64,000 nt of DNA, from contig NC_045127.1 of assembly GCF_007655135.1 (NCBI RefSeq), forward strand, positions 39,753,538-39,817,537, written 5' to 3'. The position numbers and the translations under genes were made by a program. The notes under the pieces were generated by a model. The model was not told the DNA's origin. It saw only the letters and a program-made list of their open reading frames with translations, and did no database searches. Positions 30,557 to 62,980 of this stretch are shown here, one piece after another. Within the stretch, counting starts at the first letter, position 1, and each line of letters opens with the position of its first letter. The stretch is from Punica granatum (lineage: Eukaryota > Streptophyta > Magnoliopsida > Myrtales > Lythraceae).

Positions 30557-30599
30557 ATCATCTTTCTCTAGTGAGATCCATGTGGCATTCTCTAACGGT

Positions 30600-30927
30600 T
30601 GGACAAGCTTTACTCCTTGCTTTGGGGCCCTTGGTCAGTTCTTAGCGAAGTGACTTGGTCGATTGCAAATATAGCACCTACAGGATTTGTACTTCTTTCC
30701 GAACCTCCGCTTCTTCCTCATGTACTTCCATTTCTTTCAAGAATATCTTCTGAACTTTGCTTTCGACATTTTCCACTTCTTGTAGTGCTTCTTCTTCTTG
30801 GTTAGGCAGTTGAAGGTCTTCTCCTTAGAAAAGCACTTGATGTACAACTCAAGCCACTTGCAGGCCTTCTCTATTAACTAATCTCCCTTTAGGACTTCTC
30901 TGATGGCTTCCTTTTTCATACAGGCAT
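30600..30927 (-). pseudogene. Coat-protein zinc knuckle and basic region
   Basis: A lysine/arginine-rich stretch leads into CRCYICNRPSHFAKN, a C-x2-C-x4-H-x4-C knuckle. The fourth cysteine codon is now TGA (30635-30637). In the family this knuckle sits at the C-terminus of the coat protein and binds nucleic acid. The stretch is cut at 30927 by the LTR of element A, and its upstream part lies at 61480 and above. Confidence 0.75.
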
Positions 30928-33900
30928 TGTATGGAACCGAATGTCCACTTTCGTTGGGGCCCGCATGCGCGCTTTTGGATCACGCAGCTTGGAAGTGTCC
31001 ACCTTCCTAGAGGATACGTGACGGACACGCGTAAGAATGAGTCGCCACTACCAGTTTACGACCCGAAAGTCGAGGGTCGGTGAGTTGCCCGGGTCTAGGG
31101 GTAGTGATACACCTAGTTTTGCTAAGGCATTGGTCTGTGCGGAACCGGAAAGTACGAGTTTGGGGGTTCACATTATGTGTAGGCCTATATCCCGCACACT
31201 CTTTCGGTATTCTAGCTTGCTAGGCTTGCAATTTTATTTACCGCGTGAATTAGGCTGCGCTCGGCGTACATGTTTTGACACCAGAAATTCGGTGAACTAA
31301 ACGATGTCGGTTGCGAAGCCGAGAGAGAAGTAGACCCGTGTGTCGGGGAATCGGTTCACAATCTTACATTACAGTTCATCAAACTATGATGTTTGAATTC
31401 TTGCGTGAACCGGAACCGCGAAATCTTGGGATTACTCTTGTCTGGGCAAGCATTGGACCGATACAATTGATTCGATTCTCGAACCATTCACTCACCGACT
31501 GGGATTCTAACAGAATGAATGTACAAAATAAAATCCTTACAATGCTCTCAGAAAAACAATAAATACAAATTACAAATGATCGAATCCCAGTCAGTTTACA
31601 TTCGGTTATTATTCTGAAAACTAAAATTTCAAATACGCTCTTAGTGAATAGGGCGTTGGACCCCGTAACTGATGGTTAGGGCATTGAACCATAAGTGCAA
31701 TGTGTCTTATGGGTCGAGCTCGACTCGCATGGATAAACAAGAGCAGAAAATTAACAAACAACATGCAGATTGCAGACAATGTGTTTGTTATTGCCGAGTT
31801 TATGTGGATTAACAAGTTATTAACCCAGGGGTATTTTGCAAGCAAATGCCATATGCTAAACAAGCAATCGTGCAAAACGTTTTGCATTCCGCTTTGCTTT
31901 GAAAACTTGACAAATAGAGTCAAATCTCGTGTGTGTGGATTGCTTTTACAGTTGTTATGTATTGTGACACTGAAATTCCACTGAATTAAACAAACTTGTG
32001 TTTTCATTCTAGATTTGGAACCTAGAGTTCCGCCTAATCATTATCTAGTGTTTGGTTAAGTCGAGTGAAAGGTTAATCAGCGTTTTGCATGTTTTGTGAC
32101 AGAAATAACTGTTCTAGTCACCCGAGTCTATAATAGGACGACAGAAACTCATCAGTGGATAAGAAAAGGCTTTGCAGATGAACCTGCACCTGAATAGGTA
32201 GTCTGTCCTTATCCTGATACCATAGTATTTCTGTCAAGCTAACCCTAGGGGTGTCGCTAAATTGTGAAAAGACGATTTTGCTCTTTATTTGAAAGTTGTT
32301 TTTAGAAAAGGGAAAACATTACAATGCGGGCCACCTCGGCCTGTAGCTGGTGTCGACCAATACCCTTGATCGTCCAGGGTTATGCAAGAATCCCGAAAAA
32401 GCAAAAGAACAAGTCAATCTAACCGGAAGTGATCTAAAAAGATTTTCTGTATCCTGACCTGAGTTATCTGAAATCAGGTAAAAACTCAAAGTTGAGATAC
32501 AAAAGTGCTTTCTAGACATTCTTGCTACACAGGGCATTAACGTCATTTGACAACTCATCGATGCAAGTTATCAATTAATTGCAAATTCATGCAAACTTAT
32601 TAGTGCCAAGTGGGTTTAATCGTGTGAACGTCCCGATTAACCCGTTGATGGATTTATAGTTTAAAATTAAATGTCGAATGCAGTAAGTGTATGGGTTACA
32701 GACAATCAGAGAGATCATGGATTGATTCACTAAATGAAGTCCGAGTACCCGAAAAACTTAATTTAATGAAAACAATTCATGACACGGCGACTAAGACAAG
32801 TCCAGGAAGGTCGAGGATAATCTGGTCAAAATGACCAAAATACTCTTGGAACCCAAATGGCCCCGAAAGAGTCACCAATACATGAATCCATGCATTTTTA
32901 CATTAAAACAATGTTTTAAAGTTGTTAGTATGAGGGATTTGCGACAATATTGAAATTGCAATGTACACAATTCGAGAAATGGATTTCATCGAGGTAAAGA
33001 GACCGTGCTTGACCCGAATAAGGTCGAGGAACCTTCGGCTCTTTCCTTGCTTGACCGGTCTTGACCCGAAAATGTCAAGAATACATCTCGGTTACCTCTC
33101 CAAGAGGTTAATCCGAGAGGCATCTCGACTTTTCTGGGTCGATATGGTTTCCTCGACTTCGATTTAAACATTTCCCGACATGCTAGCATGTTAAACGATA
33201 ATAAACATGCATGATATAACATGAAAACTGTATAAAGATTAAAACTTGGAAGTAAACATGCATAAAACCTCTTATAACTCCATAAACACAACAAAAATGT
33301 AAAAGTCCTAGCACCTCTAAGTTGGGAATGGTTATACCTAGTCCCAGAATGTAGGATGGGACTGTAAAAGGTCGGGTTGGACCGTTGGTGGGTCGGTCTT
33401 GGGCTGTTTTCACTTGAACAAATCCGAATGGCAACAACAGACCCGGTTGGAAGCTGTCTCGACCCGACTGGGCAGTTTTCGGGTCGGAGGTCGCCACGGT
33501 GGCTCCCAATGGTATTTTGATGCAAGGTCGGTGGCTCCCGACTCCTAAGAGACCCCCGAAGGTGGCCGTGGTGGTTGTTCGGTTCCAGAGTTATCGGGTT
33601 GACCAGTATAGCCCTGCAAAGATCATGGAAAACAGAGCACGTCCTGGAAACAGACCTGATTAGGCAGTTTTAGGGTCGGACATCACCACGATGGCTCTCG
33701 ATGAAATTTTGAGACAAGGTCAACGGCTTCCGACTCCTAACTCATCTCCAAAGGTGACTGTAGTAGTCGTTTTCCAAAAAGAGTCTCGGATCGACCCGAA
33801 CTGTAAGAAAACCATAAGAACATTCAGAAAAATCGACCCGATTGGGCAGTCGAGCTGTTTCTTCATGCTGGATTAAAACCGACGGGTTTTTCTTGGATTT

Positions 33901-34189
33901 TTCGACTCCTTGACACCTTAGGGTTGTGTGGCGAGGTGTTTGATGGGTTTTGGTAGCTCAAATCGACCCGGAAGGCCTTGAAACCTGGGTTGGAAGTTTT
34001 GACCTGAAAAGGGTAATTTTTCTGTTCGGTTATGTACTGAGATGTTCCGATGGGTTAATAGCTTCAAACTTAAAATCTAAGCTCGAAAATGGACAGAGGG
34101 GGTCGAAAACATGTGGGCTATGAAGTTTGGTGAAGTTTGGATTTAAGCCGGGATGGTAAATACCATGATTTCGACTTAAGTCTTTGAGT
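30928..34189 (-). repeat. Element A 3' LTR, distal part
   Basis: This matches 56196-59733 in order, with shared blocks such as CGAATGT..ACTTTCG near the start and GGTAAATACCATGATT near the end. It stops at 34189 where element B enters, and the match resumes at 45435. The LTR end (TGTATGGAACCGAATG) abuts pararetrovirus sequence. A roughly 195-bp tandem duplication lies at 33470-33860. The open frames here (for example 32986-33525) are chance. Confidence 0.8.
33470..33860. repeat. Two-copy tandem duplication, about 195 bp, inside LTR A
   Basis: GGGTCGGAGGTCGCCACGG near 33480 recurs as GGGTCGGACATCACCACG near 33672, with matching sequence between. The partner LTR carries the same duplication at about 59050-59400, so it predates the insertion. 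Confidence 0.7.
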
Positions 34190-36299
34190 TATGCGCACCT
34201 GAATTTCATCTCGTCGGGGCACACGTGCGCGCGCCTATGCAACACGTCTTAGGAGTGTCCACCTTCCCGGGGACGCGCGACGGACGCACGTGAGAAGGAG
34301 TCGCCACTTGCCATTTTACGATCCAAAGGTCAAGGGCCGACAAGTTACCCTGGTCTAGGGGTACAGAGTACACCTAATTGCTAAGGCATATGGTCTACGA
34401 AACTCGAGGTTTCGAATTCGGCGGTTCGGTTACATGTGAGCCTATATCTCGCACGCCCTATCGGTATTCTACCTTGTCTAGGTTTGCCATTTTAATTTAA
34501 TTACCGCTTAATTGGGTTCCGCTCATCTTACGCGTTTTGACATCGTAAATTCGAAGAAACACTCCAACCGTCCACTCTCCGACCGGGATTCTTACATGAA
34601 TAAATGTACAATATAACCCTTACATTGTTCTCTCAAATAAATAAAATACAAATTAAAACAACTGAATCCCGGTTGGTTCGCGTTCGGTTATTGTTTCACT
34701 CGTGCTCACCGTGTGGTTTGAAAAGACTGGAATTGAAATTAAAATGCACGCTCAGTGTTAAGGGATTGGACCCCGTGATCTACGATTGGATCGTTAGACC
34801 CTGTATGGACCCCGTATGGATCGTATCCTAAAGGATCGGGCTCGATCCGCATAAAAAACAAGTGCAAGAATGTAACAAGCGGGCACAAATAAACAAACAA
34901 TGGGGTTTTGTTATTGCCTAATTTTCGTGAATTAACCGATTATTAATCGGGGTATCTTGGCATGCAAATCCTACCTAAAGCAGACAAACTGGGTACAGGG
35001 TGTGAATCGATCAAGGATCGCCTCGGGAAGGTTTTTCGCATTTGACATTATTTTCCGAGGACCTGACATACGTGATGTCTGTAGTCAAGTCTTGTGTTTA
35101 TGGATTGCTTTTAGGATTTGTTCTATGCTGTGACACTACGGTTGTTACAAGTTATTACCGAACATGGATTCCGCCCGTAAATCCTAGAACCTAGTGCCTA
35201 CCCCGCTATTGCCCGTTTTTGTCTTAACCAAATACACACTTAGTCCGGTATTTGTATTTTGAGCTAATCCACTCAAACTAACTACCCGAGACTATGCTAG
35301 AATAACAAAAACTCATCGGTTGGATAGAGCGAGCTATGCAGATGAACCTGCGCCTGGACAGGTAGCCCATCCCTACCTTGATACTGTAGTGTTTCTCTTA
35401 TTCTAACTCTATGGGTGTCGTCGCTAAGCCGCAAATAGACGATTTTTCCCTTGAGGTGAAAATTATTTTCGGAAAAGAGAGACTACGCGGTGCGGGCCAC
35501 CTCGGCCTGTGACCGACGCCGACCGATCTCCTGGACCTTCCAGGGTTGTTAAGAACACTAAAAAAGCCAAAGGACCGGTCAATCTATCCGGAAGTGATCG
35601 AAGAAGAACTTCTACGCCCCGACCTGAGTTTCTTGAAATCAGGTGAGGCCTCAAGTCAAGACGTCCATGTCACATCGAGTCACATGTCTCGGGTTTTATA
35701 AAATTTGCAAGTTTTGAGAAGGGCACCAACGCATGTTTGCAACCTATTGACGCGTGTCACCAGTTTATTACCAATTCGTGCAAAATTATTAAGGCCAAGT
35801 GAGTTAATTAATCGCATGAACGTCTCAATTACCCCGTTAGTGGAATTATTGATTAAATTAATTAATGTTTTGCCAAATGCTCTAAATTTGCGGGTTTCAG
35901 ACCGTCGAGCCGATCATTGATGGACCGTCCGATGCGGATCCTAATTCCCAACCACCTTGGAATTTAAATTTAATTTTAGGCCGAGTTTGCATGATTAAAC
36001 CGATTCATGTGAGGTTTCGATTAAAACGAGAAAATAAAGCGTTTAAACACGATTCAAGAGCACATTATCACATCAAGCACGATCAAAATACTTATTTTAC
36101 ACAATCGGTGCCCCCATGATCACGATAAACACATACAAACATACACAAACATAATATTAACGGAATCGATCAAACGGCACCAACTCATGGAAGCGGGAAA
36201 ACGATGAAGATCACACATTGTCTTGTTATATACATATAATTACGGAAACAAAGATATTTAAATAGGACACATACGTTGTCGGTCGGGAATCCAGGTAGG

Positions 36300-37000
36300 A
36301 AAGGGTTGGGTATCTTTAGAAAATGTCCAGGGACTGAATTGAACAAATTTAAAAGAACAGGGACTGATATGAAAATTCGGATAAAGTTTCAGAGGACCGA
36401 TTTGAAAATTCTGGAAAATTCAGGACTGTGTAAAAATTACTGAAAATGTCCCAGGACTTGTTTGAAACGAATTTCAAAATTCGGGCTGATCTGAAAAGTG
36501 AAAAAAGCCCCAGGGACTGAACTGAAACAACGTGAAAAGTTCCCGGAACAGGTTTAGAAATTCTGAAAAATGGTAAAAATGGCTGTGACTTGACTGAAAA
36601 GAATTTTAAAATTCGGGGCAGATCTGAAAAGGAAGGAAAATAGCCCCGGGACTAAACTGAGACAACTTGAAAAGTTCCTTGGGACGATTGAAATATTCTG
36701 GAAAATTCAGGGACTGATTGGAAGATCATAAAAATGGCTAGGACTTAACTGAAAAGAATTTTAAAATTCGGGGCAGATCTGAAAAGGGCGGAAAATAACC
36801 CCGGGACTAAACTGAAACAACTTTAAAAGTTCCTTGGGATGATTGTAAAATTATGAAAAATTCAAGGACTGATTTGGAAATATTAAAATGACCAGGACTT
36901 AACTGAAACATATCTGAAAGTTAAGTGCTGATTTTTAAAAAATGAAAAGGCGTCCTCAGGACTGTAGTGAAACAAAATGAAAAGTTCGTAAAATTGAGTT
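36300..37000. repeat. Degenerate tandem repeats, about 150 bp, in LTR B
   Basis: Units begin near 36442, 36587, 36742 and 36894 with GACTT.ACTGAAA....TTTAAAATTCGGG. Each also carries AAAATTCAGGGACTG. The same repeat occurs three times in the solo LTR at 50985-51545 with about 152-bp spacing. Confidence 0.75.
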
Positions 37001-37189
37001 CGGGACAAATCCGATCATCCACGCAACCCAATAACGCTCATTTCACATCATATCCATCCAAGCAAACATTAATATTCAGAAATGGAGCCCCAAACATGCC
37101 ACTAAGTCGGGGATTTACCTAGTTCGGGAAGTTGAGGGGTGGTTTTGTAATTAAAAAAAATTCACCGGACTGGTTGGGCTGTTGGGGGC

Positions 37190-37385
37190 ACCAGATTGGG
37201 CCGGACTGGGCCGGACTGGGCTATCGGGCCGAACTGGGCGAGTCGTTGGGCAGAGTGGGCCGCTGGGATCCGAACTGGGCTGTTGGGCCAAACTGGGCCG
37301 CTGTTAGGCCTTACTGGATCGCGGCTAGTGGGCCGGACCGGATCGCGGCTGCTGGGCTAGGCTGCTGGGCATGGGCTGGGCCGCC
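37190..37385. repeat. TGGGC-rich cluster in LTR B
   Basis: About fourteen TGGGC motifs occur in under 200 bp, several of them TGGGCC. TGGGCY is the site II motif bound by TCP factors in plant promoters. The solo LTR has a weaker form at 51715-51850. Whether it acts as a control element here is unknown, since it may lie inside the transcript. Confidence 0.5.
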
Positions 37386-37932
37386 ATGCGTCTGTTCTGG
37401 CCGCTCACGGGCGGTGCCTGTGCAACCCGAAAAAACAAAAATCGATCCGGTTAGAACGAAAGACAGAAATCGAGGAGAAAGGATGCGGTTTGGGTGGCTG
37501 TGCGGTTGCACCCGACCCCGGGAGGTCACAGAGTGCAGCCGGAGGGAGCGAGGGTCGTTCGGAGAAAGAGTCGGCTGAGCTGTGGGAGTTAAGGGGGAGC
37601 CGAGAGAGGGAGGGAGATGCGAGCTGAGGGAGTTCAAAGATGCGTGAGCCGAGAAAGACAATCGAGCTGCCAGTTTCCCTCGTGTGTCAGCTGAGGGAGA
37701 GTCAGATCTGAGAGAGAGGGAGAGAGAGAGTCCGGTGAGTTGAGGGAACGCGAGGTGTGGGCGTTCGGGATTGGGGAGCTGAGGACAGAGCGGGAGCTGT
37801 CGGTTTTTTGGGAGAATGAGCGAGCTGAGGGAAAGTGTGAGTTGTCCGAAGAAAAAAAAGACTCGAGTTGTCCGCCCCGTGTGTCTGTGGACGAGACGAG
37901 GAAGAAGAACCCGAGCTGCGGTTATCTTCAAA

Positions 37933-37935
<3 letters not shown>

Positions 37936-37993
<58 letters not shown>

Positions 37994-37998
37994 AGAGA
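37936..37998. repeat. (GA)n microsatellite in LTR B
   Basis: A nearly perfect run of more than 25 GA units. On the transcribed minus strand it is a CT tract of leader type. The solo LTR has only a short GA-rich run at the matching place (52412-52445). Confidence 0.9.
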
Positions 37999-38879
37999 GT
38001 TGGCATGCACGGGAGCTGTCGTCAGGAGCCGGTCCAGTAGAGGTCGCGTATGCAGAGGTAGCGTGTGCAGAAGACGGTGCAGGGGCGGGTCACGGGCTCG
38101 GTTCCGTCCTGACAGGGAAGGAGAAAAAGAAAAGGAAAGAGAAAAAGAAAAGAAAAGAAACGGAAAGAAAAGAAGAAGAAGAAGGAGCAGGTGCGGGCGA
38201 GAAAAGGAGGAAAGAGAAAGAGAAAGGCAACGATCAGAAGTCAGACATGACTTCTGACCAGGCTCAGACCTTCTTTTCTTTTTCTTTTTTTCGAAATTCG
38301 AGTTCGACGCTCGTACAAATTGAGAATTCCTCTCTTTTTGGTCGGATGTCGGAAAAATAATTCGAGACCGCTATCGTGCTCAAAAAATTTCGTTGATCAA
38401 TATTATGCGATAAAATTGTTTTCAATCTCGAATTTTGTCCCGTATTTTGAAAATTGACGTCGATGTTTGCGAAATTCAAAAACGTCCCAAATAGTATTAT
38501 TTTTGAAAAAAAAATCATAAAATTGGTGTTAAATTAGGAAAATGTGCTATTTCCGAGAAGTCATGAGTACTCGAGTAATCAACTGAAAATACTTCCCTCG
38601 CACGGGTAACGAAATGACGATTTTACCCTTCTAGAGCCGGTGGACCAAAATTGGGTGCTGACAGCTTACACCTCTTTGATTGCGTGCTCGGATAAAGGGT
38701 GCAACCAAAGATTATGAGAAGCACCTGTTCGGTCTTGATGACCATCTGGACATTCTCCCAATAGTCGCTTGTTCTCTTGTTTGGATGTATGGGAGTAGGT
38801 CGTGTAGATGCAACGGACCTATTTATGGGAGGAAAAAGACAAAGGAGTCATGGCAAGGAAGTGATACAGTGTGAATTTG

Positions 38880-39735
38880 TAACTCAAAACAGCAAATGCA
38901 TGGATGAAACCCATAAAGCAATAAATGTGGATGCGAAGTCTAGAAAAGCCGTAAATATGGACGCGAAATCCTGAAAGCAGTAAATGTGGACGCGGAGTCC
39001 ATGGACGCGAAGTCCTGAAAGCAGTGAATATGGACGCGAAGTCCTGAAAGTAGTAAATGTGGACGCAAAGTCCAGAAACAGTAAATGTGGACGCGAAGTC
39101 CTGACGACAGTAAATGTGGACGCGGAGTCCAGAAAGCGGTAAATGTGGACGTGAAGGCCAAAAAGCAGTAAACATGGACGCAAAGTCCTAAAAGCAGTAA
39201 ACATAGACGCGAAGTCCGGAAAGCAGTAAACGTGGACGCGAAGTCCGTGGACATGAAGTCCTGAAAGCAGAAAATGTGGACGCGAAGTCCAGAAAGCAGT
39301 AAATGTGGACGCGAAGTCCTGAAGGTAGCAAATTTGGACGCGAAGTCTAGAAAGCGGTAAACATGGAAGCGAAATCCGTGGACGCGAAGTCCAAAAAGTA
39401 GTAAATGGGGACACGAAATCCGAAAAACAGTAAATGTGGACGCGAAGTCCAGAAAGCAGTAAATGTAGACGCGAAATCCGTGGACACGAAGTCCAGAAAG
39501 CAGTAAATGTAGACGCAAAGTCCGTGGATGCGAAGTCCAGAAAGCAGTAAATGTGGACGCGAAGTCCAGAAAGCAGTAAATGTGGACGCGAAGTCCAGAA
39601 AGCAGTAAATGTGGACGCGAAGTTTAGAAAGTAGTAAATGTGGACGCGAAGTCTCGAAAGCAATAAATGTGGACGCGAAGTCCGGACAGTAGTAAATGGG
39701 GACACAAAGTCCGAAAAGCAGTAAATGTGGGCATG
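38880..39735. repeat. 29-bp minisatellite array of element B
   Basis: About 28 units of consensus AAAGCAGTAAATGTGGACGC followed by GAAGTCCAG, 29 bp in all. Some units carry an extra 14-15 bp GTGGACGCGAAGTCC. The array lies just before the 3' LTR on the transcribed strand. Because 29 is not a multiple of three and the unit lacks stops, all three minus frames stay open, giving spurious frames of up to 273 codons. Confidence 0.92.
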
Positions 39736-42700
39736 AGGCGAAAATGCAGGGAATGCAGAAGCAACGACTAGTGTTAGGGAATGGCACGGGACGTCAAAGA
39801 TGGGTGCTTGGCATTGGGTCAGGGCTTTGTTGGGATGGTGCAGCGATAGGCGTGATTGGGTGCATGCTGGATGACTTGTGTCGCGTGCTTGGCGGGGATG
39901 GTTTGATCACTGTGTTCACCGGGGATACTGTTGCTTGTGAATGCTGCCATAGTGAGGCGGTGCTGAGGATTGGACTAACTCTCGGGACTAAGACGCATCT
40001 TGTCTCGGTAGAGAGTAAGGATCGCTTATGGCTTTCCCACAGAGATGGGCACCACTTTTCATTAGTCATGTGAACGGTGGTGTACGCTGAATATACGGGG
40101 CTGATGCTACCCCAAATGTGCTGATCTGCCGGAGGCCGGCGTTGCTGCCGGGACGAAGCTGCTTCGTTGGTACCTTGCCCCTAGGGTGGCGGTGTGTTTG
40201 ATCTATCGGAGGTCGGGATGGTTGTGCTTTGTTGAAGGCCTGCTTTGCCGCCGGGATGGTTGTGCTTTGCTGGAAGCCTGTTTTGCCCCTGGGGCGGTTG
40301 TGTGTTTGATCTACCGGAAGCCAGCCTCGCCACTGGGGCGGTTGCTCGTTGCTCTGCCAGATGCCGACTCTGTTGCAGGGGCGATTGTAGTTTGTTGGGG
40401 ATGCTCCGGTCTTGCAATGAAGGACTCAAACTCTTGATGAAGTGCCTACGTACCCCGAGGGATGGGAAATCAGAGTCCGCCGTAGTTCCCGTGTTTATTG
40501 TACCTGTAATCCTGACATCATTAGTAAGTCATGGGATTACTAGCGATTTGTAAGCACAGGTAAAAGGATGTGTTTGCGACACACGTTCTTCAGTTTCGGG
40601 TCGCCTGGACGACCCGTAGCGAGTTTTTGCTTTGGCGATGCGAATGAGATCCTGTTTTCGAAGGCCTCAATGCGAAGCCTCTTGGGCTCCTGTTGGCCAT
40701 GCACGGGCATATCGAGACATTCTCAATGATGCCCTAGCGGATCTGTCGGTTATTCGACGCTCCTGTCGACTTAGGGCCCTTCTCGTCAGGGTACCGTAGG
40801 GCAGCTGCGCTTGTGACTCGCATGGGAGATTTTTGTGCAAATTTGGTTAGACCTCAGTCTAGTCATTTCCAAAGTGTTATGACTTGACTCCCGGAGATGA
40901 GTGTTTAGGATTTTGGGCTTTGTGGTAGCCGATTGTAGGGTGGCTATGACTCGTTTAGAGTCATTTATGGACCGAGAGAAAAGAGAAAGTATGGGGAGCA
41001 TGTTGCCCCAAGCTAAAAGGATACAAGGTTCACGCCTGCAATGAGATGTACCCTCATTTTCTTCCGTCCTTATGTTGGTGTTAGCTGTCTTGAACTACTT
41101 GGATTGCGTGCTTGGTCGCCCGTTGTGCTTGAGGAAGAATCCGCCTTGGACAGTTGTGTCGTGCAGGAGAGCCGATCAGGGATCGTGTTGGGGTAGATAA
41201 CCTGGCCATTTCCCTTGGGGATCCCTAGTTCGCGCAGTGTACGAGTTCCTAGGGTGACTGTTTTGTTTATCTTTCGTTTTACTCCCATTTTGCTACGGTC
41301 ACCCACTTCGGGGCTGTACCTCTCAACCTAAAGGGGATGAGCTCTCCTTTTGTCATGACCGCCCACAAGGAGTTTTCGGTTGTGCCTCTCTTTTGCCCTA
41401 ACTTTTGCCTAGGCCGCCCCCAAAAAGGGGATTTTGGACCTAGCAGGCTTGATTCTTTTGTCTCTCAAGTTTGCAAGGGCGAAGGTTTCAAGGGTTCGAC
41501 CTCCGAGTGCATTGTGTTCTGTCTCTGTCAAGGAATTGCGTCTACTGCTCCCCTTTTTGTCGGGGTTTGTTGATTTCTTCTAATTGGCGGTGCCGGAATT
41601 TTAAATCTTGACGGTGTCTTGTTTTGTTCATTGGCAGGTTTTTTCTGCGTCTTTTCTCTCACTCTTCATTGGCGAGTTTTTCCCGCTTCTTTTCGCTCTG
41701 TTATTTTCTTTTCTTTTCTTTTTTCTTTCTTGTAGTTGGGGTTTGTTTTGCGCCCCGTGTCTTTGTTTAAAACTCCACGTTTGTATCATCAAGGCTGCTT
41801 TGATGTGCTTTGCCCAGTGGAGACTTGTTGCGTTTTGCTGTCCCAGCCCCATTTTGTGAGGGCCGACTTTCTTGAAAGTTTGACTCTTGTGCACTCGAGA
41901 GCCGAACTTCGCGTCATTTGCTTTGCAAGCTTTATATGTGAATTTCCCCCTATTGTCTAGAAAGAAAATAAGAGATTGTCCCGGTGCGAATGTTGGACGA
42001 GGATGCCTCGGTCTTCATTTGTTGAAGTGGCCCATAGCAAATGCTTTGTGCGATCATTGTCCCCGACCGTGTCTTGTGATTCCCCTGGCGGGTGCCTTTT
42101 GGAGAGGCATGCTTTTGAAGCCGATGGATGCATTTGGTCCCGGGGCTCGTTGTCACTTGACGACTGTTAATGAGCCTTTGCAGTGGCGGTGGCCTGATTT
42201 GCCTCTAGGCGTCACTCGATCTCAATGGAGACGCTTGCGTTGACGTTGAATTGTTTGTTCGATCGTCTCTGTTTTCGGCTTCGGAGGGGGGTACCTCTTG
42301 ATCAGACCCTTTCCCTATCGAAGTAAAAGGTGAAGGGCCCGACAGAGTTATCGGGGAGATGAGAACCCGTGCATCGTTCTTCGCCTGTGACCGGCGTGAC
42401 CTTGTGAAGGACGAAGAAAATGTTGCATTAGACCATTGTCGCGGTGGATTATGCGGTAAGAAATATAGAGTGGATCCATGAGAAAATCATTTTCGTCCAG
42501 CAAGCGACCCATAGGGTGCCACACGTGAAGGACACTCAATTCCGGGAGTCAGGTCATTGCCATGCCGGAGTGGTTAGACCGTGACTAGGGGCTGCATAGG
42601 TGTACTTCCCCTGATTGCGAGTAGGCATGCGCAGCCGTCCTAGGGAAGGCTCGAGGAGCCGAGTCCCATGAGGATAAGCGAATTGAACAAGTTGGACAGA

Positions 42701-43399
42701 ACTAATAGGGCGTCTTCTAGATTGTCCTAGTGCCCCTTGAATGGTTCGTTCAAGCCGGGAGCTTGTTTGGAAATGCAAATAAATGTAAAAGAGCATTTGA
42801 AGGAGAGTGCGTGTTGCCCCAGTGGCAGGTTGGTGGCCATAGCGGAGGGTGGGTTAGGCCCATTCTTCGATCGGCAGTGTGATCGTACTGGCAACCCCGT
42901 GGCGGGTAGGCTGGGACATGCTCTGCTCGTCGGAGCTGTTGTCTATGATCTTTCGTGGAGGGAGGGTCGGCCCTCATTGTTGAAATCCCGAGGGTTAGCC
43001 GAGAAAGTTTTGTTGTCCTAATCCTAGATGTTTGGTATTCAGGCTGCCTTCTTGTTGGGTACTTCCTGCAATAGGATAAGAAAAACAATGAAAGAGCAAG
43101 AAGAACTGTCTACAGTTTTAATGCAAGGGTGAAGCGGAGCGGACTAGCTGGTTGGCGTCGTGCAAGCACGCCGAGGGTGTGTGCATCGGTAAGGTGGAGG
43201 CATGCTCGCACGACGCGAAAGGACACACTCGGTTGTGCTAGTGGACGTGCTCGGTTGCGCGAAGAGACGTGTACTCGATCACGCAATGACGCTTGGTTAC
43301 GCGAGGTTAGTGAGAAGCTAGCTTTGCCTAGGAAGGTGGATTGGCCCTCGGGCCATGGCTCGCCTTACCGTTGAGAGGGGGTGAAGGTCGCGGTTGGTC

Positions 43400-44382: not shown

Positions 44383-44404
44383 GTCCCCAGTAGAGTCGTC
44401 AAGC
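44383..44404 (-). promoter_or_regulatory. Primer binding site of element B
   Basis: Directly after the 5' LTR the minus strand reads GCTTGACGACTCTACTGGGG. From memory, Tat/Ogre elements have a TTGGCGACTC.ACTGGGGA-type site for a tRNA primer; this is a close but mutated match. Element A has the matching site at 56174-56195. Confidence 0.65.
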
Positions 44405-46729: not shown

Positions 46730-46859
46730 AAAGGTGCGTGGATGTGAGAAAGAGTGTATGCGAAACAGAAAATTGTGTGCTTAAAGGAAAAGGGTGCATG
46801 CGTCAGGGGAATGTGCGTGCATATAGGGGAAGGGACTTGCTATGAAGAAAAGTGCTCGT

Positions 46860-53085: not shown

Positions 53086-54299
53086 GACGACGTGCTCAAT
53101 TACCCATTGTGTTTGAAGAAGATTCCGCCTTGGACGGTTGAGTTGTGTAGGAGAACCGATCGAGGATCATGTTGGAGTAGAGAACCTAGCCATTTTCCCT
53201 AGGGATCCCTAGTCCACGCAATGTGTGAAGGACTAGGGGGTAATTTTATTTATCTCTTATTTTGCTCTCCTTTTACTACAGTCACCCACCTCGGTACCAA
53301 ATTGCCCCATGTGGAATAAGGAACCGAGGTTACCTCGGTGTGAATGTTGAACGGGGATGCCCCGGTTTTCATTTGTTGAAGTGGCCCGTGGCAGGCGCCT
53401 TGTGCAATCATTGTCCTCAATTATATCTTGCTATTTCCGCAGTACATGCCTTTTGGATGGTGCACGCTGCTGAAGCCGATGAATGTTCAAGGAAAACGGT
53501 TGCGTTGATGCTGGGCGATTTGCTCAATTGTCTGTGTCTTCAACTTCGTAGGGGGGTACCTCATTGTCAAACACCTCCCTCGTTGAAGTATGAGGAAAGG
53601 GTCCGAGACAAGTTCTTGGGAGGCGCGGACCCGTGCATCACCCTTCACCTGTGACTGACGTGTCCCTATGAAGAATGACAAAGAAGATGGTACATTAGGC
53701 GATTATGCGGTGGAACATGTGGAAAGAAATATGGGGTGGACCCATGGGAAAATCCCTTTTTGCCCAGCCCGCGACCTATGGAGTGTTGCGTGTGGATGAC
53801 ATTTGTTTCCGGGAATCTGATCATCACAACTCTAGAGTGGTTAGACTGTGACTGGGATCACATAAGCATGTTTTCCCTGGTTGCGAGTAAGCATGCGCAG
53901 TCGTCCTAAGGAAGGCTCGAAAAGCCAGGTCCCCTGAGGACAAGCGAGTCGAACAGGTCCGACAGAACTACTAGGCCGTCGCTAGGACTGTCCTAATGTC
54001 CTTTTTGAAGGGCTTGTTCTAGTTGGGAGCCCATTTGGGAATGCATTCGAATAAAAGCAAAATAAAGTTTAAGGAAAAGCGCGCGTGTTGTCCCAGTGTT
54101 TAGCCGGTGACGATGGCGAGGGCGAGTGGAAGCCATTCTTTGGTTGGAGGCATAATCATGCAGGTATCTCCTGCGATCAAGGGTTAGGTCATGCTCTGTT
54201 TGTGGAGCTGTCACTTTCGACATTTGCAATGGAAGGATTAGATTCATCCCTCGAAGTATCGTTTGGATGAATTTGAATCCAAGTCGATTTTGGACTTAA

Positions 54300-54645
54300 G
54301 ATGAGCCTGAAAGTAGTAAATGCAGAGTGTAAAAATCTAGAAGCAGTAAATGCTAGGTCGGGGCCCGAAAGCAATAAATGCATGGCCTAGGCCCGATGCG
54401 GGGCCGAAGCCTCATGCAGGGCTGAAGCCTAAAAGCAATAAATGCAGGGCCAAAACTCGATGCGGGGCCGAAGCCCAATGCAGTAAATGCGAGGCCGAAG
54501 CCCAAAAGCAGTAAATGCGGGGCCGAAGCCCAAAAGTAGTAAATACAGGGCCGAAGCCCGATGCGAGGCTGAATCCCGAAAGCAGTAAATGCGGGGCCGA
54601 AACCCGATGCAGTAAATGCAGGCCCAAAAGCAAAGGTCAATGCTG
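54300..54645. repeat. 28-bp minisatellite array of element A
   Basis: Units contain GGGGCCGAAGCCC followed by AAAAGCAGTAAATGC. The half AAAGCAGTAAATG is shared with the 29-bp array of element B; the other half differs. About eleven irregular units occur. The array sits at a different place in the internal region from the element B array. Confidence 0.85.
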
Positions 54646-55309
54646 GGGAATAGCGCAAGGCGCTGCAAAGCAGTGACTCTGATTTGCTTGCTATCTTTGT
54701 AGAGGGAGGGTGGGAACTCAGTGTTGAAATCCCAAGGAGCTGGATGAGAGACGTTTGTTGTCTCAATTGTGGTTGTTCAGTACTCAGGCTGCCTTCTTAT
54801 TGGGGATTTCTTGCAATGGGAGAAAAAAGCAATGAAGGAGCATGAACTGTCTGGAATTTCAATGCAAGAGTATAGGGAAACGAAATGGCCTGGTAGGCGT
54901 CGTGCAAATACGTCGAGGGACATGCATAGGGTGGCGTCGAGTGCATGTGCATAAGCGAGGTGGAGACGTGCTTGCACGACGCAGAATGATGCGCTCAGTT
55001 GAGTTGGTGGACGTGCGTGCTCAATCACGTGGTGACATGCTTGGTTGTAGTGAGGGGTGGGTGGCTGGGATGAACGGCCTCTGGTCACGGCACATCTCGC
55101 CATGGAGAGGTGAAGACTGCAGGTGGTCTACCCGCAAAGGTGGGCACAACTCGCCTGTTGTGCGAAAGTGTTAACTGTTATGGAAAACAGTAAATGAATA
55201 GGATGCATACGATGCGTGCGTTTTCAAAAACTAATGTTGTCATTTACATTGACTCGAAAGGTTCAAAGTACAATGTAAATTTTGTAAAACAAAGTCCTAA
55301 GTTGATTTT

Positions 55310-55640
55310 CCACCTCACTCGGAGTTTGAGCGAGCGCAGCTTCAGAAAATGCCGGTTCTAGGTGAGGGCCTTGCAGAGACATCTATCCTAGAGTGCTTGT
55401 GTTGGCTTCCATGAGCCCTCTTTCTAGACCTCTCCGAGGCGACATTCACTCAATCGAGCTCCTGATCGCTCTCAGTAGCTTGGTGCAGGTCTGAGTAAGC
55501 TCCCTCTGAGGTTGTGGTTGGCCGACGATTTCCTCATTTTGTGGCAGGTCCGTGAGGTCCTCGTAAGCTGACGAACTCTGTCGAGGCGTGGGCAGAAGGC
55601 CGAGCATGGCGTCCCTTACCAAGACGACAAGAAGATCCAC
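55310..55640 (-). pseudogene. Gag N-terminal scrap of element A
   Basis: The minus frame at 55446-55640 contains RDAMLGLLPTPRQSSSAYED and then PQPQRELTQTCTKLL, which matches the element B scrap. It then runs through stops. It lies about 600 bp after the primer site, where gag should start. The rest of gag and all of pol are missing. Confidence 0.6.
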
Positions 55641-56173
55641 CTAAGACTCGTCAAAGTGAATGACATCCTAGTTTTTGAAAATTGCATGATGCATGCGTGC
55701 GAAGAAAGTAAATGCCCACGACTTAATAAAAATTACAAGGTACATGTACACTGCTCTTGAAATGGAAAAAACTCAAGTGGCTCACAGGCCGACTCAATGG
55801 ACTGTTGTCGGAGTTGGGTAGAAAGCTTGCATGGAGGCATAGCACGATGTATGGTTTGGTGCTATAGGGACCGTGCTACTTAGGGATGGGGGCCCCGACT
55901 CACGGTAGTCAATTCCTCGAAATCGAGCGGGATTCTTTTCAAGGCCTAAGCGACAGTCGAACTACGTGTCGTACCCCTACTTCGAACCCCTGTCTAACTT
56001 GGGTTGCCTAAAACCGGTCGTGGGACGTGACCCATAGGTACCTAGTGCTAGCGTGATATACAAGGCGAGTTCTTAAATAAAAGTGCGTAAAGTAGATAAG
56101 AGGGAAAATTGCAGAAAGCGGTAAATGAACATGCAAGCAAGCAAACAAAATCGAGCCCGAACCCACTAAGTAT

Positions 56174-56195
56174 GACCCTAGTGGAGTCCAAAAGC
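56174..56195 (-). promoter_or_regulatory. Primer binding site of element A
   Basis: The minus strand reads GCTTTTGGACTCCACTAGGG directly after the 5' LTR. It matches the element B site and the Tat/Ogre-type consensus apart from a two-base loss and one change. It marks 56196-61479 as the 5' LTR. Confidence 0.6.
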
Positions 56196-59100
56196 TGTAC
56201 GGACCCGAATGTGGACTTTCGTCGGGGCCCGCATGCGCGCTTTTGCATCATGCGGCTTGGGAGTGTCCACCTTCCCTGGAGATGCAGGATGGACAAGCGT
56301 GAGAAGGAGTCGCCGCTACCTGTTTACAACCCGAAGGTCGAGGGCTAGTGAGTTGCCCGGGTCTAGGAGTAGTGATACACCTAGTTTTGCTAAGGCATTG
56401 ATTTGTGCGGAACCAGAAAGTCCGAGTTCGGGGGTTCACATTATGTGTGGGCCTATATCCTACACGCCCTTTCAGTACTCTAGTTTGCTAGGCTTGCAAT
56501 TTCATTTACCGTGTGAATTAGGCTGCGCTCGGCGTACACGTTTTGATACCGGAAATGCGGTGAACTAAACGATGTCGGTTGAGAAGCCGAGAGAGAAGTA
56601 GACCGTGTATTAGGGAATCGGTTCACAATCTTGCGTTACAGTTTATCAAACTATGATGTTTGAATTCCTGCGTGAACCGGAACCGCGAAATCTTGGGATT
56701 ACTCTTGTCTGGGCAAGCATTGGACCAATTCGATTGATTCGACTCTCAGACCGTTCACTCACCGATTAGGATTCTTACAAAATGAATGTACAAAATAAAA
56801 TCCTTACAATGCTCTCAGAAAAACAATAAATACAAATTACAAATGATTGAATCCCAGTCAATTTGCATTCGATTATTATTCTGTTTCGACTCACCGTGAG
56901 TTTAGGAAAAAACCGAAAACTAAAATTCAAATACGCTCTCAGTGAATAGGGCGTTGGACCCCGTGACTGATGGTTAGGGCGTTGAACCCTAAGTGCAATG
57001 CGTCCTATCGGTCGGGCTTGACTCGCATGGACAAACAAGAGCAGAAAATTAACAAACAGCATGCAAATTGCAGACAATGTGTTTGTTATTGTCGAGTTTA
57101 CGTGGACTAATAAGTTATTAACCCAAGGGTTTTTTGCAAGTAAATGCCATATGCTAAACAAGCAATCGTGCAAAATGTTTTGCATTCGGCTTTGCATTGA
57201 GAACTTGACAAATAGAGTCAAATCTCGTGTGTGAATTGCTTTTACAGTTGTTCTGTATTGTGACATTGAAATTCCACTGAATTAGCCAAACTCGTGTTTT
57301 GACTCTAGATTTGGAACCTAGAGTTCCACCTAACCATTATCTAGTGTTTGGTTAGATCGAGTGAAAGGTTAATCAGCGTTTTGCATGTTTTGTGACAGTG
57401 ATAACCGTTCTAGTTACCCAAGTCTACGATAAGATGACAGAAACTCATCAGTAGATAAGAAAAGGCTTTGCAGATGAACCTATCCCTGAACAAGTAGCTT
57501 GTCCTTATCCAAATACCATAGTGTTTCTGTCAAGCTAAACTTAGGGGTGTCGCTAAATTATGAAAAGTCGATTTTGCCCTTTATTTGAAAGATGTTTTTA
57601 GAAAAGGGAAAACATCGCAGTGCGGGCCACCTCGGCCTGTAGCCGGTGTCGACCAATTCCCTTGATAGTCCAAGGTTATGCAAGAACGCCGAAAAAGCCA
57701 AAGAATAGGTCAATCTAACCGGAAGTGATCTAAAAAGATCTTCTGTATCCTGACCTGAGTTACCTGAAATCAGGTAAAAGCTCAAGTTGAGACACAAAAG
57801 TCCTTTCTAACATTCGTGCTACATCGGACTGCGCGTTTTGGGTTTTGAAATAAACAAGTTTTGAAAAGGGCATTAACGTCATTTGACAACTCATCGACGT
57901 GAGTTATCAATTTATTACCAATTCATGCAAACTTATCAGTGCCAAGTGGGTTTAATCGTGTGAACGTCCCGATTAATCCGTTGGTGGATTTATAGGTTAA
58001 AATTAAATGCCAAATGCAGTAAATGTGCGGTTTATAGACAATTAGACAAATCATGGATTGATCCACTAAATGAAGTCCGAGTACCCAAAAAGCTTAATTT
58101 AATGAAAACAATTCATGACTAGGCGACTAAGACGAGTCCAAGAAGGTAGAGGATAATTTGGTCAGAATGACCAAAATACCGTCGGAACCCAAATGGCCTC
58201 GAAAGAGTCACTGATACATGAATCCATGCATTTTTACTTTAAAAACAATGTTTTAAAGTTGTTAGCATGCGGGATTTGCGACGATATTGAAATTGCAATG
58301 TATACAAAATCCGAGAAATGTATTTCATCGAGGTAAAGAGATCGTTCTTGACCTGAATAAGGTCGAGGAACCTTCGGCTCTTTCCTCTTGGGAATAGCCG
58401 TGGGTTTCCTTGACCCGTTTCGGATTTCAGGCGTTCTCTTTAACCCAATTTTGACTATTTCTCGTATGCTCAAACGTTAAATACATGTATTTAACAAAGC
58501 CAGTATTGCCAAGAGTTTGGAAAACGCATTCAAGCATATAAACATGCACAAACACGTTATTTATGGAATAGATAAAATAATACCGGCTCCATGGATGCGG
58601 GAAAGCATAAAAATTCAGGAAACAACTCAAATTGGGGCTAGGACACCGGTCTTGACCCGAAAAGGTCAAGAGTACATCTCGATTATCTCTCCAAGAGGCT
58701 AATCCGAGAGGTATCTCGGTTTTTCCGAGTCGATATGGTTTTCTCGACTTCGATTTAAACATTTTTCAACATGCTAGCACATAAAACGATGATAAACATG
58801 CATGATATAACATGAAAATTGCATAAAGATTAAAACTTAGAAGTAAAACATGCATAAAACCCCTTATAACTCCATAAACACAACAAAATATAAAAGTCTA
58901 GCACCTCTAAGTCAGGAATGATTATACCTAGTCCCGGGATGTGGGATGAGACTGTAAAAAGTCGGGTTGGACCGTTGGTGGGTCGGTTTTGGGCTATTTT
59001 GGCTTGAACAGACCCGAGCGACAATAACAGACCCCGGTTGGAAGCTATCTCGACCTGACTGGGCAGTTTTCGAGTCGGAGGCCACCACGGTGGTTCCCGA

Positions 59101-61479
59101 TGGTATTTTGATGCAAGGTCTGTGGCTCCCGACTTCTAAGAGACCCCCGAAGGTGGCTGTGGTGGTTGTTTGGTTCCAGAGTTATAGGGTTGACACGTAT
59201 AGCCTTGCAAAGATCATGGAAAACAGAGCACGTCTTAGAAACAGACCAGACTAGACAGTTTTCGGGTCGGACGTCACCATGGTGGCTCCCGATGGAATTT
59301 TGAGGGAAGGTCAACGGCTTCCGACTCCTAACTCACCTCCGGAGGTAACTGTGGTGGTCGTTTTGCGAAAAGAGTCTCGGATCGACCCGACTGGGCAATC
59401 GGGCTGTTTCTTCGTGCTGGGTTAAAACCAATGGATTTTTCTTGGATTTCTCAACTCCTTGACACCCTAGGGTTGTGTAGAGATGTGTTTGATGGGTTCT
59501 GGTAGCTCAAACCGACCCGAAAGGCCTTGAAACCCGAGTTGGAAGTTTTGACCCGAAAAGGGCAATTTTTCTGTTCGGTTCTATACTGAGCTGTTCCGAT
59601 GGGTTAGAGACTTCAAACATAAAATCTAAGCTCGAAAATGGATAGAGGGGGTCGAAAACATGTGGGATATGAAGTTTGGTGAAATTTGGATTTAAGCCGG
59701 GATGGTAAATACCATGATTCCGACTTAAGTCTTTGGTGTTCTTGTTTGGTTTTGCTTGTTGAAGAGCTGTGGTTTGCTTGAGGAGTTTGAGAGAATTTGA
59801 AGAGTGAGAAATGCTAGAGAGATAACATGTGGTGAGCTGTGAATAGCTTAATGACAATAATGCAATATATAGGCAAAGATTAATGACAATTAAGTGGAAC
59901 AAAGTGCAATTAAGCCCTTGATTAGGGGGATCCGAATTTTTAATGAGGATGGGGATGAAGACTTGTTCAAATGCATTAATGAAGAATATCCAAATGCATT
60001 GATGAAGGTGGAGTGTAGAATGAGATTGTGGGCTTGATATTTTAGATAAGGATAATGCAAGTTGGCTTCTTGATTTGATGAAGAAGATGACAAAGGAGGG
60101 GCAACAATGTCAATTTGCAGCTGCCCTAGGGCAAACTGTGGGCCCTTCGGGTTATGAGGGAAGTTCGGGACAAAGTTCGGGTCTCGATTGATCGCGTGTT
60201 CGAGGTTCGTGGCTCAAATGAACGTCGAATTGTTAATGTGCGCGTGAAAACGGTTCAAATGAGCCCAAAATCATTAATTTTGCCCAAAAGAATGTTCGTG
60301 TAGTTTTTGGGCTCGGAAGCCGGTTTTGCTCGTTTCAGGCGATCAGAGCAAAGTTAGCCATTTCTGAATGTGCATCTCGTGTCTGCATTTCGAATGGGTC
60401 ATTTTGACGTGCATTGTCAATCAGACTGAATAATTGACCCTTAAGTCGGTATTGCAAATGTGAAGCAAGAGACGTCCTAGAAGTCCAAAGTCAGATTTCT
60501 CAGAATGCTTTCTGAGTTGCTTGGATGATCCAGAGATCGCTGCGATCTCTGTTTGTTGATAATGGACTTCGAATGATTGAAAAACTACATCTGAAACTCT
60601 AAAAGCATTGTTCTTAAGGTCTAGATGGATTGTGGGATTCTGTATGAGAATTTCACATCGAGCCTTGGGATAAGTAGCACTGGGTAGGCTAATCATCCGT
60701 TGTCAAGTTTCCGTAAAAAGGACATTCGGTTATGAATTTCCGTTAAAAATGGTCTTTTCTGCTCTTTAGAGGTCATTCGGAAACTAAAAGGGATATTGCA
60801 GTCTGATTTGCCCAATTGAGTCTGTCCATTGCAGTTTTGGGGCAATGCATGGCTAACTTCATTTGTTGATGTTCTGTCAGAGCAGTCTCCGGATATGCTT
60901 TTCCGTTGAGGGGTATGCTTGTTCTACCGCTCGGGAGTCATTCGAGGTGTCTACGTGACTTCCGATGAGCAATCTGAAGCAATGCTCATGCTTTGTATAA
61001 TTGTTGGATGTGACTGCATCTGACATCGGGCATTAACTTTTCTCTTGTGAACCGGCGTTTTAGGACTCCCATTGAAAAGTTATCTAAATTCAAAAAATTA
61101 CTATGTATAGAGCAGATGATCTGCGAAATGTCTTTGAAAACACTTTTAATCTGTTTGGCACCGCAAGGGTTTTTTGGAGTCCAATACTTACTATCTTCTG
61201 ATGGTCAAGCGAACCAGCAGAAATAGCACTGTCGGCGATGTATTCTGAAAACACCGATTTGGATGTTGTCTGTGCTCCCTGTTTGCTCTGCATGTTGCTG
61301 GATGATTCTGTATGTTCTTCTTTCATGTGCTTGAATCATCTGCCTATCTCTGTTGACTTAAGAATGAATAGCAATTTGCTGCTCTGTCGAGCCTTCTTCC
61401 ATATCAATGCTCAAGTCATAGTTTGGATTGCTGTTGATAGGCATTTCCTGAACTTGTGAGCCAAAATGGGGTGCTAACA
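56196..61479 (-). repeat. Element A 5' LTR, 5.28 kb
   Basis: The right end (LTR start on the minus strand) is TGTTAGCACCCCATTTTGG at 61479. The left end is TGTACGGACCCGAATG at 56196. It is complete and provides the uninterrupted reference for both nested insertion sites. It contains the 195-bp duplication (59050-59400) and a TATA box at 59863-59873. The first 449 bp (61031-61479) have no counterpart in the 3' LTR. All open frames inside are short and motif-free. Confidence 0.85.
59863..59873 (-). promoter_or_regulatory. TATA box in the LTR A 5' copy
   Basis: The minus strand reads CCTATATATTG with a leader containing ACATGTTATCTCTCTAGC downstream. It is about 1.6 kb from the LTR start. Confidence 0.5.
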
Positions 61480-62980
61480 GACACCTTCAAGGGCTACATG
61501 AATCTCATGCTGGATTTCTCCAACAGTGCAGTCAATGACTCATTTGCCTCTTGCCTGAAGTAACATTTCCGCTGCTCCTGCTAAAGATGCAGGAATAGAG
61601 GAGAGCAAAACTTGCTTCAAAGAAATATCTGCCCCGAGCTCATAGAATACCGGACCATGTGCTTGAAGTGCAAATCCAAATGCTTTCTCTCGTAGGAACA
61701 ACACTTCTTCTCAAAGAACTCTTTTCTTTTGTGCTCTTTGAGATCTTCAGGATGTCCTATAAAATGCACGTGCATAATATGGATAACTTCTGCAGGGCTT
61801 CTTATGAGGAACTGGAGCTAGTCCTGCTCGGTTAATCCTGTCCACCAGTTTCTTAATGTCCCAGAAAACTAGGATACAAACTCAGAAAATGAGTTTGTGG
61901 TTGTTCTGGATGGTGAGTGCTCGGGTGGTTAGGTAAGCCAAAAACTCCTGGAGCCTATCTGGCCACCTGGAGGGATATCGTTTACGGTGAAGACGATATT
62001 CCCTCTTGAAGGTGCTATTGCAACCACTGGAGGCGGTGGATCTGCCATTTCTGACCTGGCTTCATCTAACTCCATCTCCCCTTCCCATCATCTTTACTGG
62101 GGGATAGGAGTCTTCGGTCTCCCACGAGTCTTTTGATTCTTCAGGAGAGGCTTCTGATTCTTGCTTCTCTTCTTCCTCTGATACTGAGTTAGATGCTTCA
62201 TCCTGTACCAGCATCTGATTATCTTCGCACTGCTCCTTAATAAAGGAGCTCAGAGGATTCTCTTTAGGGAAAACCATGAAGGCTTCTTGTGCTTCTTCTT
62301 CTTCACTATCTTCGTTCTTCTTTTCCTTTTCTTCTTTTGGAGGCTTGGAGACCGATGGAACTAGTCCTGGAGGGGTTTCATATACCTCCTTTTTCTTCCT
62401 GCTCTTCTTTTGGCAGTCTCTGTAGCCTGTCTCGCCTTTTCCCTTAGTTCCACAAGGATAGCCTTTCTAGGTTGTTGTTCTTTCTGCGAAGGAGAGAACA
62501 ATGAAAGCCTTATAGACCTGTTTCTTTCTCCGAGTGGTTTCTCCAAAAAGTTGAAGAGGATTGTGATCGGGGAAGTTAGTGGTGATGGTGCTTGAGTCCC
62601 AGAGAGAATCGCAATATGATTTTTGAGCTTGCGAATCTCTTCCTTTTTTCGATCCAGATCAATATGGAAATATGAGATAGGAAGGGTATCCTGGATCTCC
62701 TTAAGATGCTTTTGGAGGGTACGAAGGAGTGACTGGGTCTATTGATGGTGCCTATCAACTTTGCTGTCAAGCTAGCTGACTTTTGAAGTTAATACGTCCA
62801 CCTTAGTTCCAATAGAGGGAGAATACACGGTTTTGGGATACCGCGTTTTCAGACTGCAAGTTAAGAACGGCTTATCCTCTGGTAACGGACTTAGGGTTTC
62901 CTCTTTCATCCCGATCTGTCGGATTTGGAACTTTAAAGGCATGGGTATGCCTTCCATCACCATCTATAAACTGTCCCAAC
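61480..62980 (-). pseudogene. Pararetrovirus coat-protein region, broken
   Basis: Short minus frames show an acidic segment (62062-62277, with SVSEEEEKQESEASPEE) and Lys/Arg-rich pieces (62361-62546), a charge pattern typical of pararetrovirus coat precursors. No single open frame covers it. It would form the virion shell and join the zinc knuckle now at 30640. Assignment rests mainly on position between movement protein and knuckle. Confidence 0.5.

What the first reader, a model, noticed from the sequence alone, without database searches (positions are those of the whole stretch)
30923..61484. One pararetrovirus copy split by a 30.5 kb giant retrotransposon
The sequence at 27725-30927 carries zinc knuckle to RNase H and the sequence at 61480-64000 carries movement and coat regions, both minus strand and in family order. 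Between them lies one bounded element whose termini abut viral sequence on both sides. The flanks GGCAT and GACAC look like a decayed 5-bp duplication. The reading frame on the two sides appears compatible across the site. This gives a relative date: the virus integrated before element A.
Basis: partly seen in the sequence, partly recalled or inferred. Interest (0 to 1): 0.75.

Follow-up and report, generated by a model that had tools for sequence, protein, structure and literature searches.

The report
Viral fossil split by nested retrotransposons
A decayed copy of a plant virus in a plant chromosome, very probably pomegranate, was cut in two by a jumping element into which further jumping elements later landed: an ordinary but cleanly readable layering that gives the order of events.

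Summary
The sequences left of 30927 and right of 61480 are consecutive parts of one endogenous caulimovirid copy. Two independent flank searches of the window's own genome show this: of 36 other copies whose right-flank match reaches the site, 27 have the left-flank match exactly adjacent (offset 0), 2 are off by one base, and 7 had no adjacent partner among the scored hits. The uninterrupted site reads GGCAT in 8 of 9 copies inspected. So 30923-30927 GGCAT and 61480-61484 GACAC are a decayed 5-bp target-site duplication. The hit lies about 250 nt upstream of the zinc knuckle, inferred to be the coat-protein region; codon phase agrees on both sides.

One correction: the 30.55 kb insert is not one giant retrotransposon but a nest of three: A (about 15.1 kb, one LTR of 5.28 kb), B (11.2 kb) inside A's left LTR, and C (a 4.2 kb solo LTR) inside A's internal region. 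No retroelement protein domain was found. Divergences agree with virus before A, but A and B are not separable by date. The assembly matches published statistics of pomegranate 'Tunisia'. Known kind; no new mechanism.

The parts
27757..30927 (-). Left part of the endogenous caulimovirid copy (degenerate zinc knuckle, protease, RT, RNase H, downstream region)
   Evidence: Aligns at 85-89% to sister pieces L026-L028 (3 of 3 fetched), all ending at 27757-27761; Pfam pieces; PDB chain 8r0s_A 'Enzymatic polyprotein' matched by the RNase H piece (E=4.1e-13) and the RT piece (E=8.9e-7)
30635..30676 (-). Degenerate CCHC zinc knuckle (last Cys lost to a stop)
61480..64000 (-). Right part of the same viral copy (movement-protein region and inferred coat-protein region); continues outside the window at least to the equivalent of 64509
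   Evidence: Aligns to nine sisters L010-L018; PF01107 in 63666-63998; shared with L039 up to L025 position 509
30923..30927 (.). Left copy of the 5-bp target-site duplication of A, GGCAT (undecayed)
   Evidence: Uninterrupted site GGCAT in 8 of 9 sister loci, AGCAT in the ninth
61480..61484 (.). Right copy of the duplication, GACAC (two transitions from GGCAT)
30928..61479 (-). Element A with its guests (30,552 bp; 15,068 bp without B, C and their duplications)
56196..61479 (-). A 5' LTR (element on the minus strand), 5,284 bp
   Evidence: Terminal 450 bp recur genome-wide: 40 matches scored, the window's own included, 36 of them running to the last base
30928..34189 (-). A 3' LTR, outer part, up to the B insertion
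   Evidence: 87% identical to 56196-58386 and 86% to 58645-59735
45435..46729 (-). A 3' LTR, inner part; similarity to the other LTR stops at 46729, so about 450 bp and the polypurine-tract side are missing
   Evidence: 91% identical to 59735-61029; no LTR end found after 46729
34190..45434 (-). Element B, nested in A's 3' LTR, 11,245 bp; 3' LTR 34190-38663, 5' LTR 44405-45434 (about 3.5 kb deleted inside)
   Evidence: LTR pairs 89% and 94% identical; empty site TCTTTGGTGTTCTTG in A's other LTR at 59730-59744; duplication GGTGT at 45435-45439, worn to GAGT at 34186-34189
46730..48856 (-). A internal region, part 1 (with tandem repeats)
   Evidence: Its last 0.8 kb aligns to another A-family copy right up to the C-equivalent site; tandem arrays
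48857..53085 (-). C, solo LTR of the B family, 4,229 bp, duplication GACGG (48852-48856) / GACGA (53086-53090)
   Evidence: 87% identical to B's LTR over 2.6 kb; empty site in another A-family copy: flanks adjacent at 6838/6839 with pentamer GGCGG
53086..56195 (-). A internal region, part 2, ending at a primer-binding-like GCTTTTGGACTCCACTAGGG next to the 5' LTR

Best explanation
A caulimovirid DNA integrated into the host genome, leaving a partial provirus of at least about 6.2 kb on the minus strand. Later an LTR retrotransposon (A), of a high-copy family with LTRs of about 5.3 kb and no detected protein genes, was inserted by retroelement integrase into the inferred coat-protein region, duplicating the 5 bp GGCAT. 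Still later a related element (B) entered A's 3' LTR, and another B-family element entered A's internal region and was reduced to a solo LTR (C). Shown here: consecutive viral segments, three target-site duplications each with an empty site elsewhere, and the nesting order virus, then A, then B and C. Inferred: insertion by integrase supplied in trans, reduction of C by recombination between its LTRs, and the deletion at A's inner LTR end.
For: Adjacency at offset 0 in 27 of 36 other copies. Empty site GGCAT in 8 of 9 sister loci, AGCAT in the ninth. Same codon phase on both sides. In separate trees of the two halves the window's nearest rows by path include L010-L013 in both, with end branches 0.081 and 0.079. 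LTR anatomy and nested duplications; empty site for B in A's own other LTR and for C in another A-family copy. K2P: window virus against its four nearest sisters 0.129-0.150, A LTRs 0.102 [0.091-0.113], B LTRs 0.092 [0.071-0.110].
Against: No orthologous empty site was available: the empty sites are paralogous copies in the same genome. 7 of 36 copies gave no adjacent partner among the scored hits, and 6 of 35 left matches near the site (the window included) no adjacent right match. The A and B divergences overlap, so their order rests on nesting, not on dates; the interval for the nearest sister (0.112-0.146) just touches that of the A LTRs. The window-to-sister divergence includes viral evolution before integration and is only an upper bound for the integration age. 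The tree of the right half is unresolved. B's left duplication is worn to 4 bp. A's left LTR lacks its inner end.
Confidence: 0.95

Rival explanations
1. Two unrelated viral fragments happen to flank one retrotransposon.
For: Endogenous viral copies are numerous here (55 and 79 first-look candidates, 40 scored in each) and often partial.
Against: Exact adjacency in 27 of 36 other copies, matching duplication, same strand, same phase, same nearest sisters on both sides.
Confidence: 0.01
2. Assembly artefact: two loci joined through a high-copy retrotransposon.
For: A's family is very abundant (5421 and 1689 first-look candidates, 40 scored in each).
Against: No N in the window; a wrong join through a repeat would not be expected to give a matching 5-bp duplication at the same viral base; the matching published assembly is PacBio with contig N50 4.49 Mb (PMC7061868, passages).
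Confidence: 0.03
3. One single 30.5 kb giant retrotransposon.
For: The outermost ends are one TG...CA pair with one duplication.
Against: Two internal LTR-bounded units, each with its own duplication and a demonstrated empty site; another A-family copy has about 5.3 kb between its LTRs.
Confidence: 0.02

Closest known systems
Endogenous caulimovirids (florendovirus-type layout; PMC4241990, passages seen; petuvirus layout recalled)
   Same: Order movement protein, coat protein with zinc finger, protease, RT, RNase H; decayed; tens of copies in one genome
   Different: Genus not determined: no reference sequences were at hand; florendovirus ORF2 not tested
LARD-type non-autonomous LTR elements; PLE/LARD derivatives are given as 17.86% of the pomegranate 'Tunisia' genome (PMC7061868, passages seen)
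   Same: Long LTRs (5.3 and 4.5 kb), internal region of about 5 kb without detected protein domains, high copy
   Different: Internal region longer than the classical LARD as I recall it; whether the paper's LARDs are this family was not tested
Tat/OTA Ty3-gypsy lineage (PMC6317226 and PMC11963269, passages seen)
   Same: 5-bp duplications, tandem repeats on the 3' side of the internal region, TGG-containing primer-site-like stretch just after the 5' LTR
   Different: No gag-pol found, so the RT-based membership cannot be tested; the primer tRNA was not identified
Nested plant LTR retrotransposons (PMC6911290, start of abstract in a search listing)
   Same: Element-in-element nesting is common
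   Different: Here the outermost target is a viral insertion

Membership tests
Endogenous Caulimoviridae | RT and RNase H of caulimovirid type | tested here: met
   RT_RNaseH E=1.4e-15; RT matches to PF00078 below cut-off; PDB 8r0s_A 'Enzymatic polyprotein' by RNase H and RT pieces; some RT-piece hits are plant proteins named 'putative reverse transcriptase domain, viral movement protein'
Endogenous Caulimoviridae | 30K-type movement protein upstream of coat protein and pol | tested here: met
   PF01107 24.1 bits against cut-off 23 at 63666-63998; order shown by continuity in sister copies. A PDB search with the same piece found nothing
Endogenous Caulimoviridae | CCHC zinc knuckle in the coat-protein region | tested here: met
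   Degenerate in the window; CCHC 251-254 nt past the site and in frame in 4 of 9 sister loci (L011-L014), in L017 with an inner stop and off frame, not found in 4 (L010, L015, L016, L018); in L016 and L018 the virus-like stretch or the locus ends before the motif would be complete
Florendovirus | Genus-specific ORF2 and RT placement | not tested
   No reference sequences; the structure model of the RT piece was too poor to search (mean pLDDT 60.2)
LTR retrotransposon | Direct LTRs with TG...CA ends and a 5-bp target-site duplication | tested here: met
   A and B have LTR pairs, C is a solo LTR; B's 3' LTR now ends in TA for TG and its left duplication is worn
LARD | LTRs over 4 kb (definition recalled) | tested here: met
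   5,284 bp (A, 56196-61479) and 4,474 bp (B, 34190-38663) by coordinates
LARD | No gag or pol coding domains | tested here: met
   No Pfam retroelement domain and no match above its cut-off in 28 of 28 minus-strand internal frames of 70 codons or more, 7 of 8 minus-strand LTR frames of 110 codons or more (frames listed), and 4 frames of another A-family copy; longest stop-free frame in that copy 198 codons. Plus-strand frames and shorter pieces were not scanned
Tat/OTA lineage | RT phylogeny with aRH domain | not testable with these tools
   No RT found in these elements

The most novel reading that the evidence does not exclude
The window copy and its nearest sisters L010-L013 form a star-like set with similar end branches (0.06-0.09 in the trees), which would fit one burst of endogenisation of a single caulimovirid lineage followed by neutral decay. 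The nested elements would give an internal minimum age for that burst (A's LTR divergence), a datable viral fossil in pomegranate.
Probability: 0.45. Interest if true: 0.4.

Novelty: new member of a known kind. Interest (0 to 1): 0.28.

Why it matters
It gives a base-exact example in which a plant viral integration is bracketed in time by nested retrotransposons with their own LTR clocks, so the virus has a minimum age independent of viral rates. It also warns that a 30 kb 'giant element' read by eye can be a nest. It does not change what is known about how either kind of element works.

Tried and rejected
Viral contig collection: four scans with RT, RNase H-region, movement-protein and coat-region pieces matched 4, 13, 3 and 5 stretches, none confirmed as a relative. 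Rfam at gathering threshold: 0 matches; tRNA: 0. The structure model of the RT piece had mean pLDDT 60.2 and pTM 0.46 and was not searched further. The solved-structure search with the movement-protein piece gave nothing. Considered and rejected: that 61030-61479 is foreign to A's LTR because the left LTR lacks it; it recurs genome-wide as the LTR end. Considered: mosaic origin of the two halves, because 12 of the 26 copies compared are 74-77% identical on the right but 82-86% on the left (values); the closest sisters are alike on both sides, and the rank correlation over 26 of the 29 adjacent pairs is 0.64 (I left out three pairs with partial matches). Faster coat-region evolution in the deeper copies is the simpler reading; it was not tested. 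Paper searches: endogenous pararetroviruses (25 of 68 papers listed), Punica with endogenous viruses (15 of 210 listed), nesting of pararetroviruses (14 of 14 listed), plant LTR elements (15 of 4,684 listed), pomegranate genome (8 of 75 listed), LARD (8 of 71 listed). None of the listed titles or abstract starts reports this locus; 'Punica' had 0 occurrences in the main text of three surveys and 'caulimo' 0 in the pomegranate genome paper. I do not claim that it is unpublished.

Full report
WHERE. The window is C1:39753538-39817537 of a 320,430,517-base assembly in 474 contigs. C1 is 55,558,335 bases and C3 39,957,110. The published pomegranate 'Tunisia' assembly has 320.31 Mb, 473 scaffolds, longest scaffold 55.56 Mb and scaffold N50 39.96 Mb (PMC7061868, passages). 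The host is therefore almost certainly Punica granatum; this is an inference from those numbers and from Punica proteins among the named RT-piece hits (best 89% identity over 56% of the query; the best-scoring hit of all is unnamed).

THE VIRUS. On the minus strand the right flank carries a movement-protein piece and pieces that by position are coat protein (no Pfam match); the left flank carries a degenerate zinc knuckle, a below-cut-off A3-protease match, RT pieces with below-cut-off PF00078 matches, and RNase H above cut-off. RT and RNase H pieces match PDB chain 8r0s_A, 'Enzymatic polyprotein'. Stops interrupt both halves. The genus was not determined. The order of domains is that described for florendoviruses (PMC4241990, passages) and, as I recall, for petuviruses.

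ONE COPY, SPLIT. I searched the genome with 800 bases left of the site and, separately, 800 bases right of it. The right query gave 42 matches and the left 43, with 40 candidates scored in each. Of the right matches, 37 reach within 12 nt of the site, one being the window itself. For the other 36, the left match lies at offset exactly 0 in 27, at -1 in 2 (diverged copies), far away in 3, and has no partner on the same contig and strand in 4. One of those four (L016) is continuous by direct alignment. Six of the 35 left matches near the site, the window included, had no adjacent right match. For the window the offset is 30,557, that is the 30,552-base insert plus 5. The uninterrupted site in nine sister loci reads GGCAT in eight and AGCAT in one. 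Hence GGCAT (30923-30927) is the original pentamer and GACAC (61480-61484) its copy with two transitions.

FRAME. Read separately, the right flank has a codon ending at 61480 and the left flank a codon ending at 30923, in the same phase over the duplication. In sisters, frames over the site are 270 (L011), 252 (L016), 244 (L012), 210 (L014), 127 (L010), 117 (L015), 97 (L018), 62 (L017) and 33 (L013) codons; the CCHC motif lies 251-254 nt downstream in the same frame in four of nine, once more off frame with an inner stop, and was not found in four, two of which end too early to show it. The insertion thus broke what is inferred to be the coat-protein region.

THE INSERT IS A NEST. Self-comparison pairs 30928-34186 plus 45435-46729 with 56196-61029: these are A's two LTRs, the left one opened by 34190-45434 (B). 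In A's right LTR the same place reads TCTTTGGTGTTCTTG without interruption, and B is flanked by GGTGT on the right and a worn GAGT on the left. B has LTRs 34190-38663 and 44405-45434, the latter with about 3.5 kb deleted. C, 48857-53085, is a solo LTR of the B family with GACGG/GACGA; in another A-family copy (C1 near 39.07-39.09 Mb, itself with partial duplications in one LTR) A's internal sequences on the two sides of C lie directly adjacent, at 6838 and 6839, with GGCGG at the site. A alone is 15,068 bp. Its left LTR lacks the inner 450 bp; that these belong to the LTR is shown by their recurrence in 40 scored matches, the window's own included, 36 of which run to the last base. All three elements are on the minus strand by the place of the primer-site-like stretch next to the right-hand LTRs of A and B and by C's orientation. 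Pfam found no retroelement domain, and nothing above its cut-off, in 28 of 28 minus-strand internal frames of at least 70 codons, 7 of 8 minus-strand LTR frames of at least 110 codons, and 4 frames of the other A-family copy. Matches below cut-off in tandem-repeat translations were YdgV (E 7e-5, 1.6e-4, 0.077) and zf-RING-like (E 2.1e-4), with no stretch passing on its own; the remaining ones have E of 0.0055 or more.

RELATIVE DATES. K2P: window virus to four nearest sisters L010-L013 0.129, 0.142, 0.148 and 0.150; A LTRs 0.102 [0.091-0.113]; B LTRs 0.092 [0.071-0.110]. With CG and CHG sites left out: 0.090-0.115, 0.064 and 0.056. The order agrees with the nesting, but A and B are not separable, and the interval of the nearest sister (0.112-0.146) just touches that of A. 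The viral value includes evolution before integration. With a recalled rate of 7e-9 to 1.3e-8 per site per year A would be about 4-7 million years old; this is rough. Trees of each half apart, on 8 rows (window plus seven of the nine sister loci; L016 and L018 dropped because partial), agree as far as they resolve: on the left the window sits in a supported set with L010-L013 and L017; on the right no fork holding the window is supported, but the nearest rows by path are again L010-L013; the window's end branch is 0.081 (left) and 0.079 (right).

LIMITS OF THE COPY. Similarity to three sisters ends at 27757-27761 on the left, where the sisters share about 700-820 bases more with each other, so the window copy stops there. 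On the right the window's flank is shared with sisters up to L025 positions 149, 368 and 509; the last, equivalent to 64509, is a minimum, because the sisters themselves end at different points. The copy is a partial provirus of at least about 6.2 kb.

VERDICT. Such layering is ordinary in plant genomes; its value is as a clean relative clock.

Noticed in passing
8015-8787 (+) and 14164-14878 (-): Fragments in opposite orientation related (about 69-78%) to the LTR ends of the A and B families, so further members of these families lie in the left part of the window.
   Followed up: no
38884-39762, 46859-47665, 54414-54628: Tandem arrays (periods about 29, 18-64 and 28 bp) in the internal regions of B and A; Retand-type elements are reported to carry short tandem arrays there.
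   Followed up: partly
window viral flanks against genome copies: 12 of 26 compared viral copies are 74-77% identical on the coat-region side but 82-86% on the protease/RT side, while the nearest sisters are alike on both: possibly faster coat-region evolution before integration, or mosaics.
   Followed up: partly
L039 positions 511-1440: Inverted and direct repeats of about 290-370 bp beyond the end of the viral similarity in one sister copy.
   Followed up: no
44991-45053 in B's right LTR: About 3.5 kb present in B's other LTR (34776-38282) is missing here, a large internal LTR deletion.
   Followed up: no
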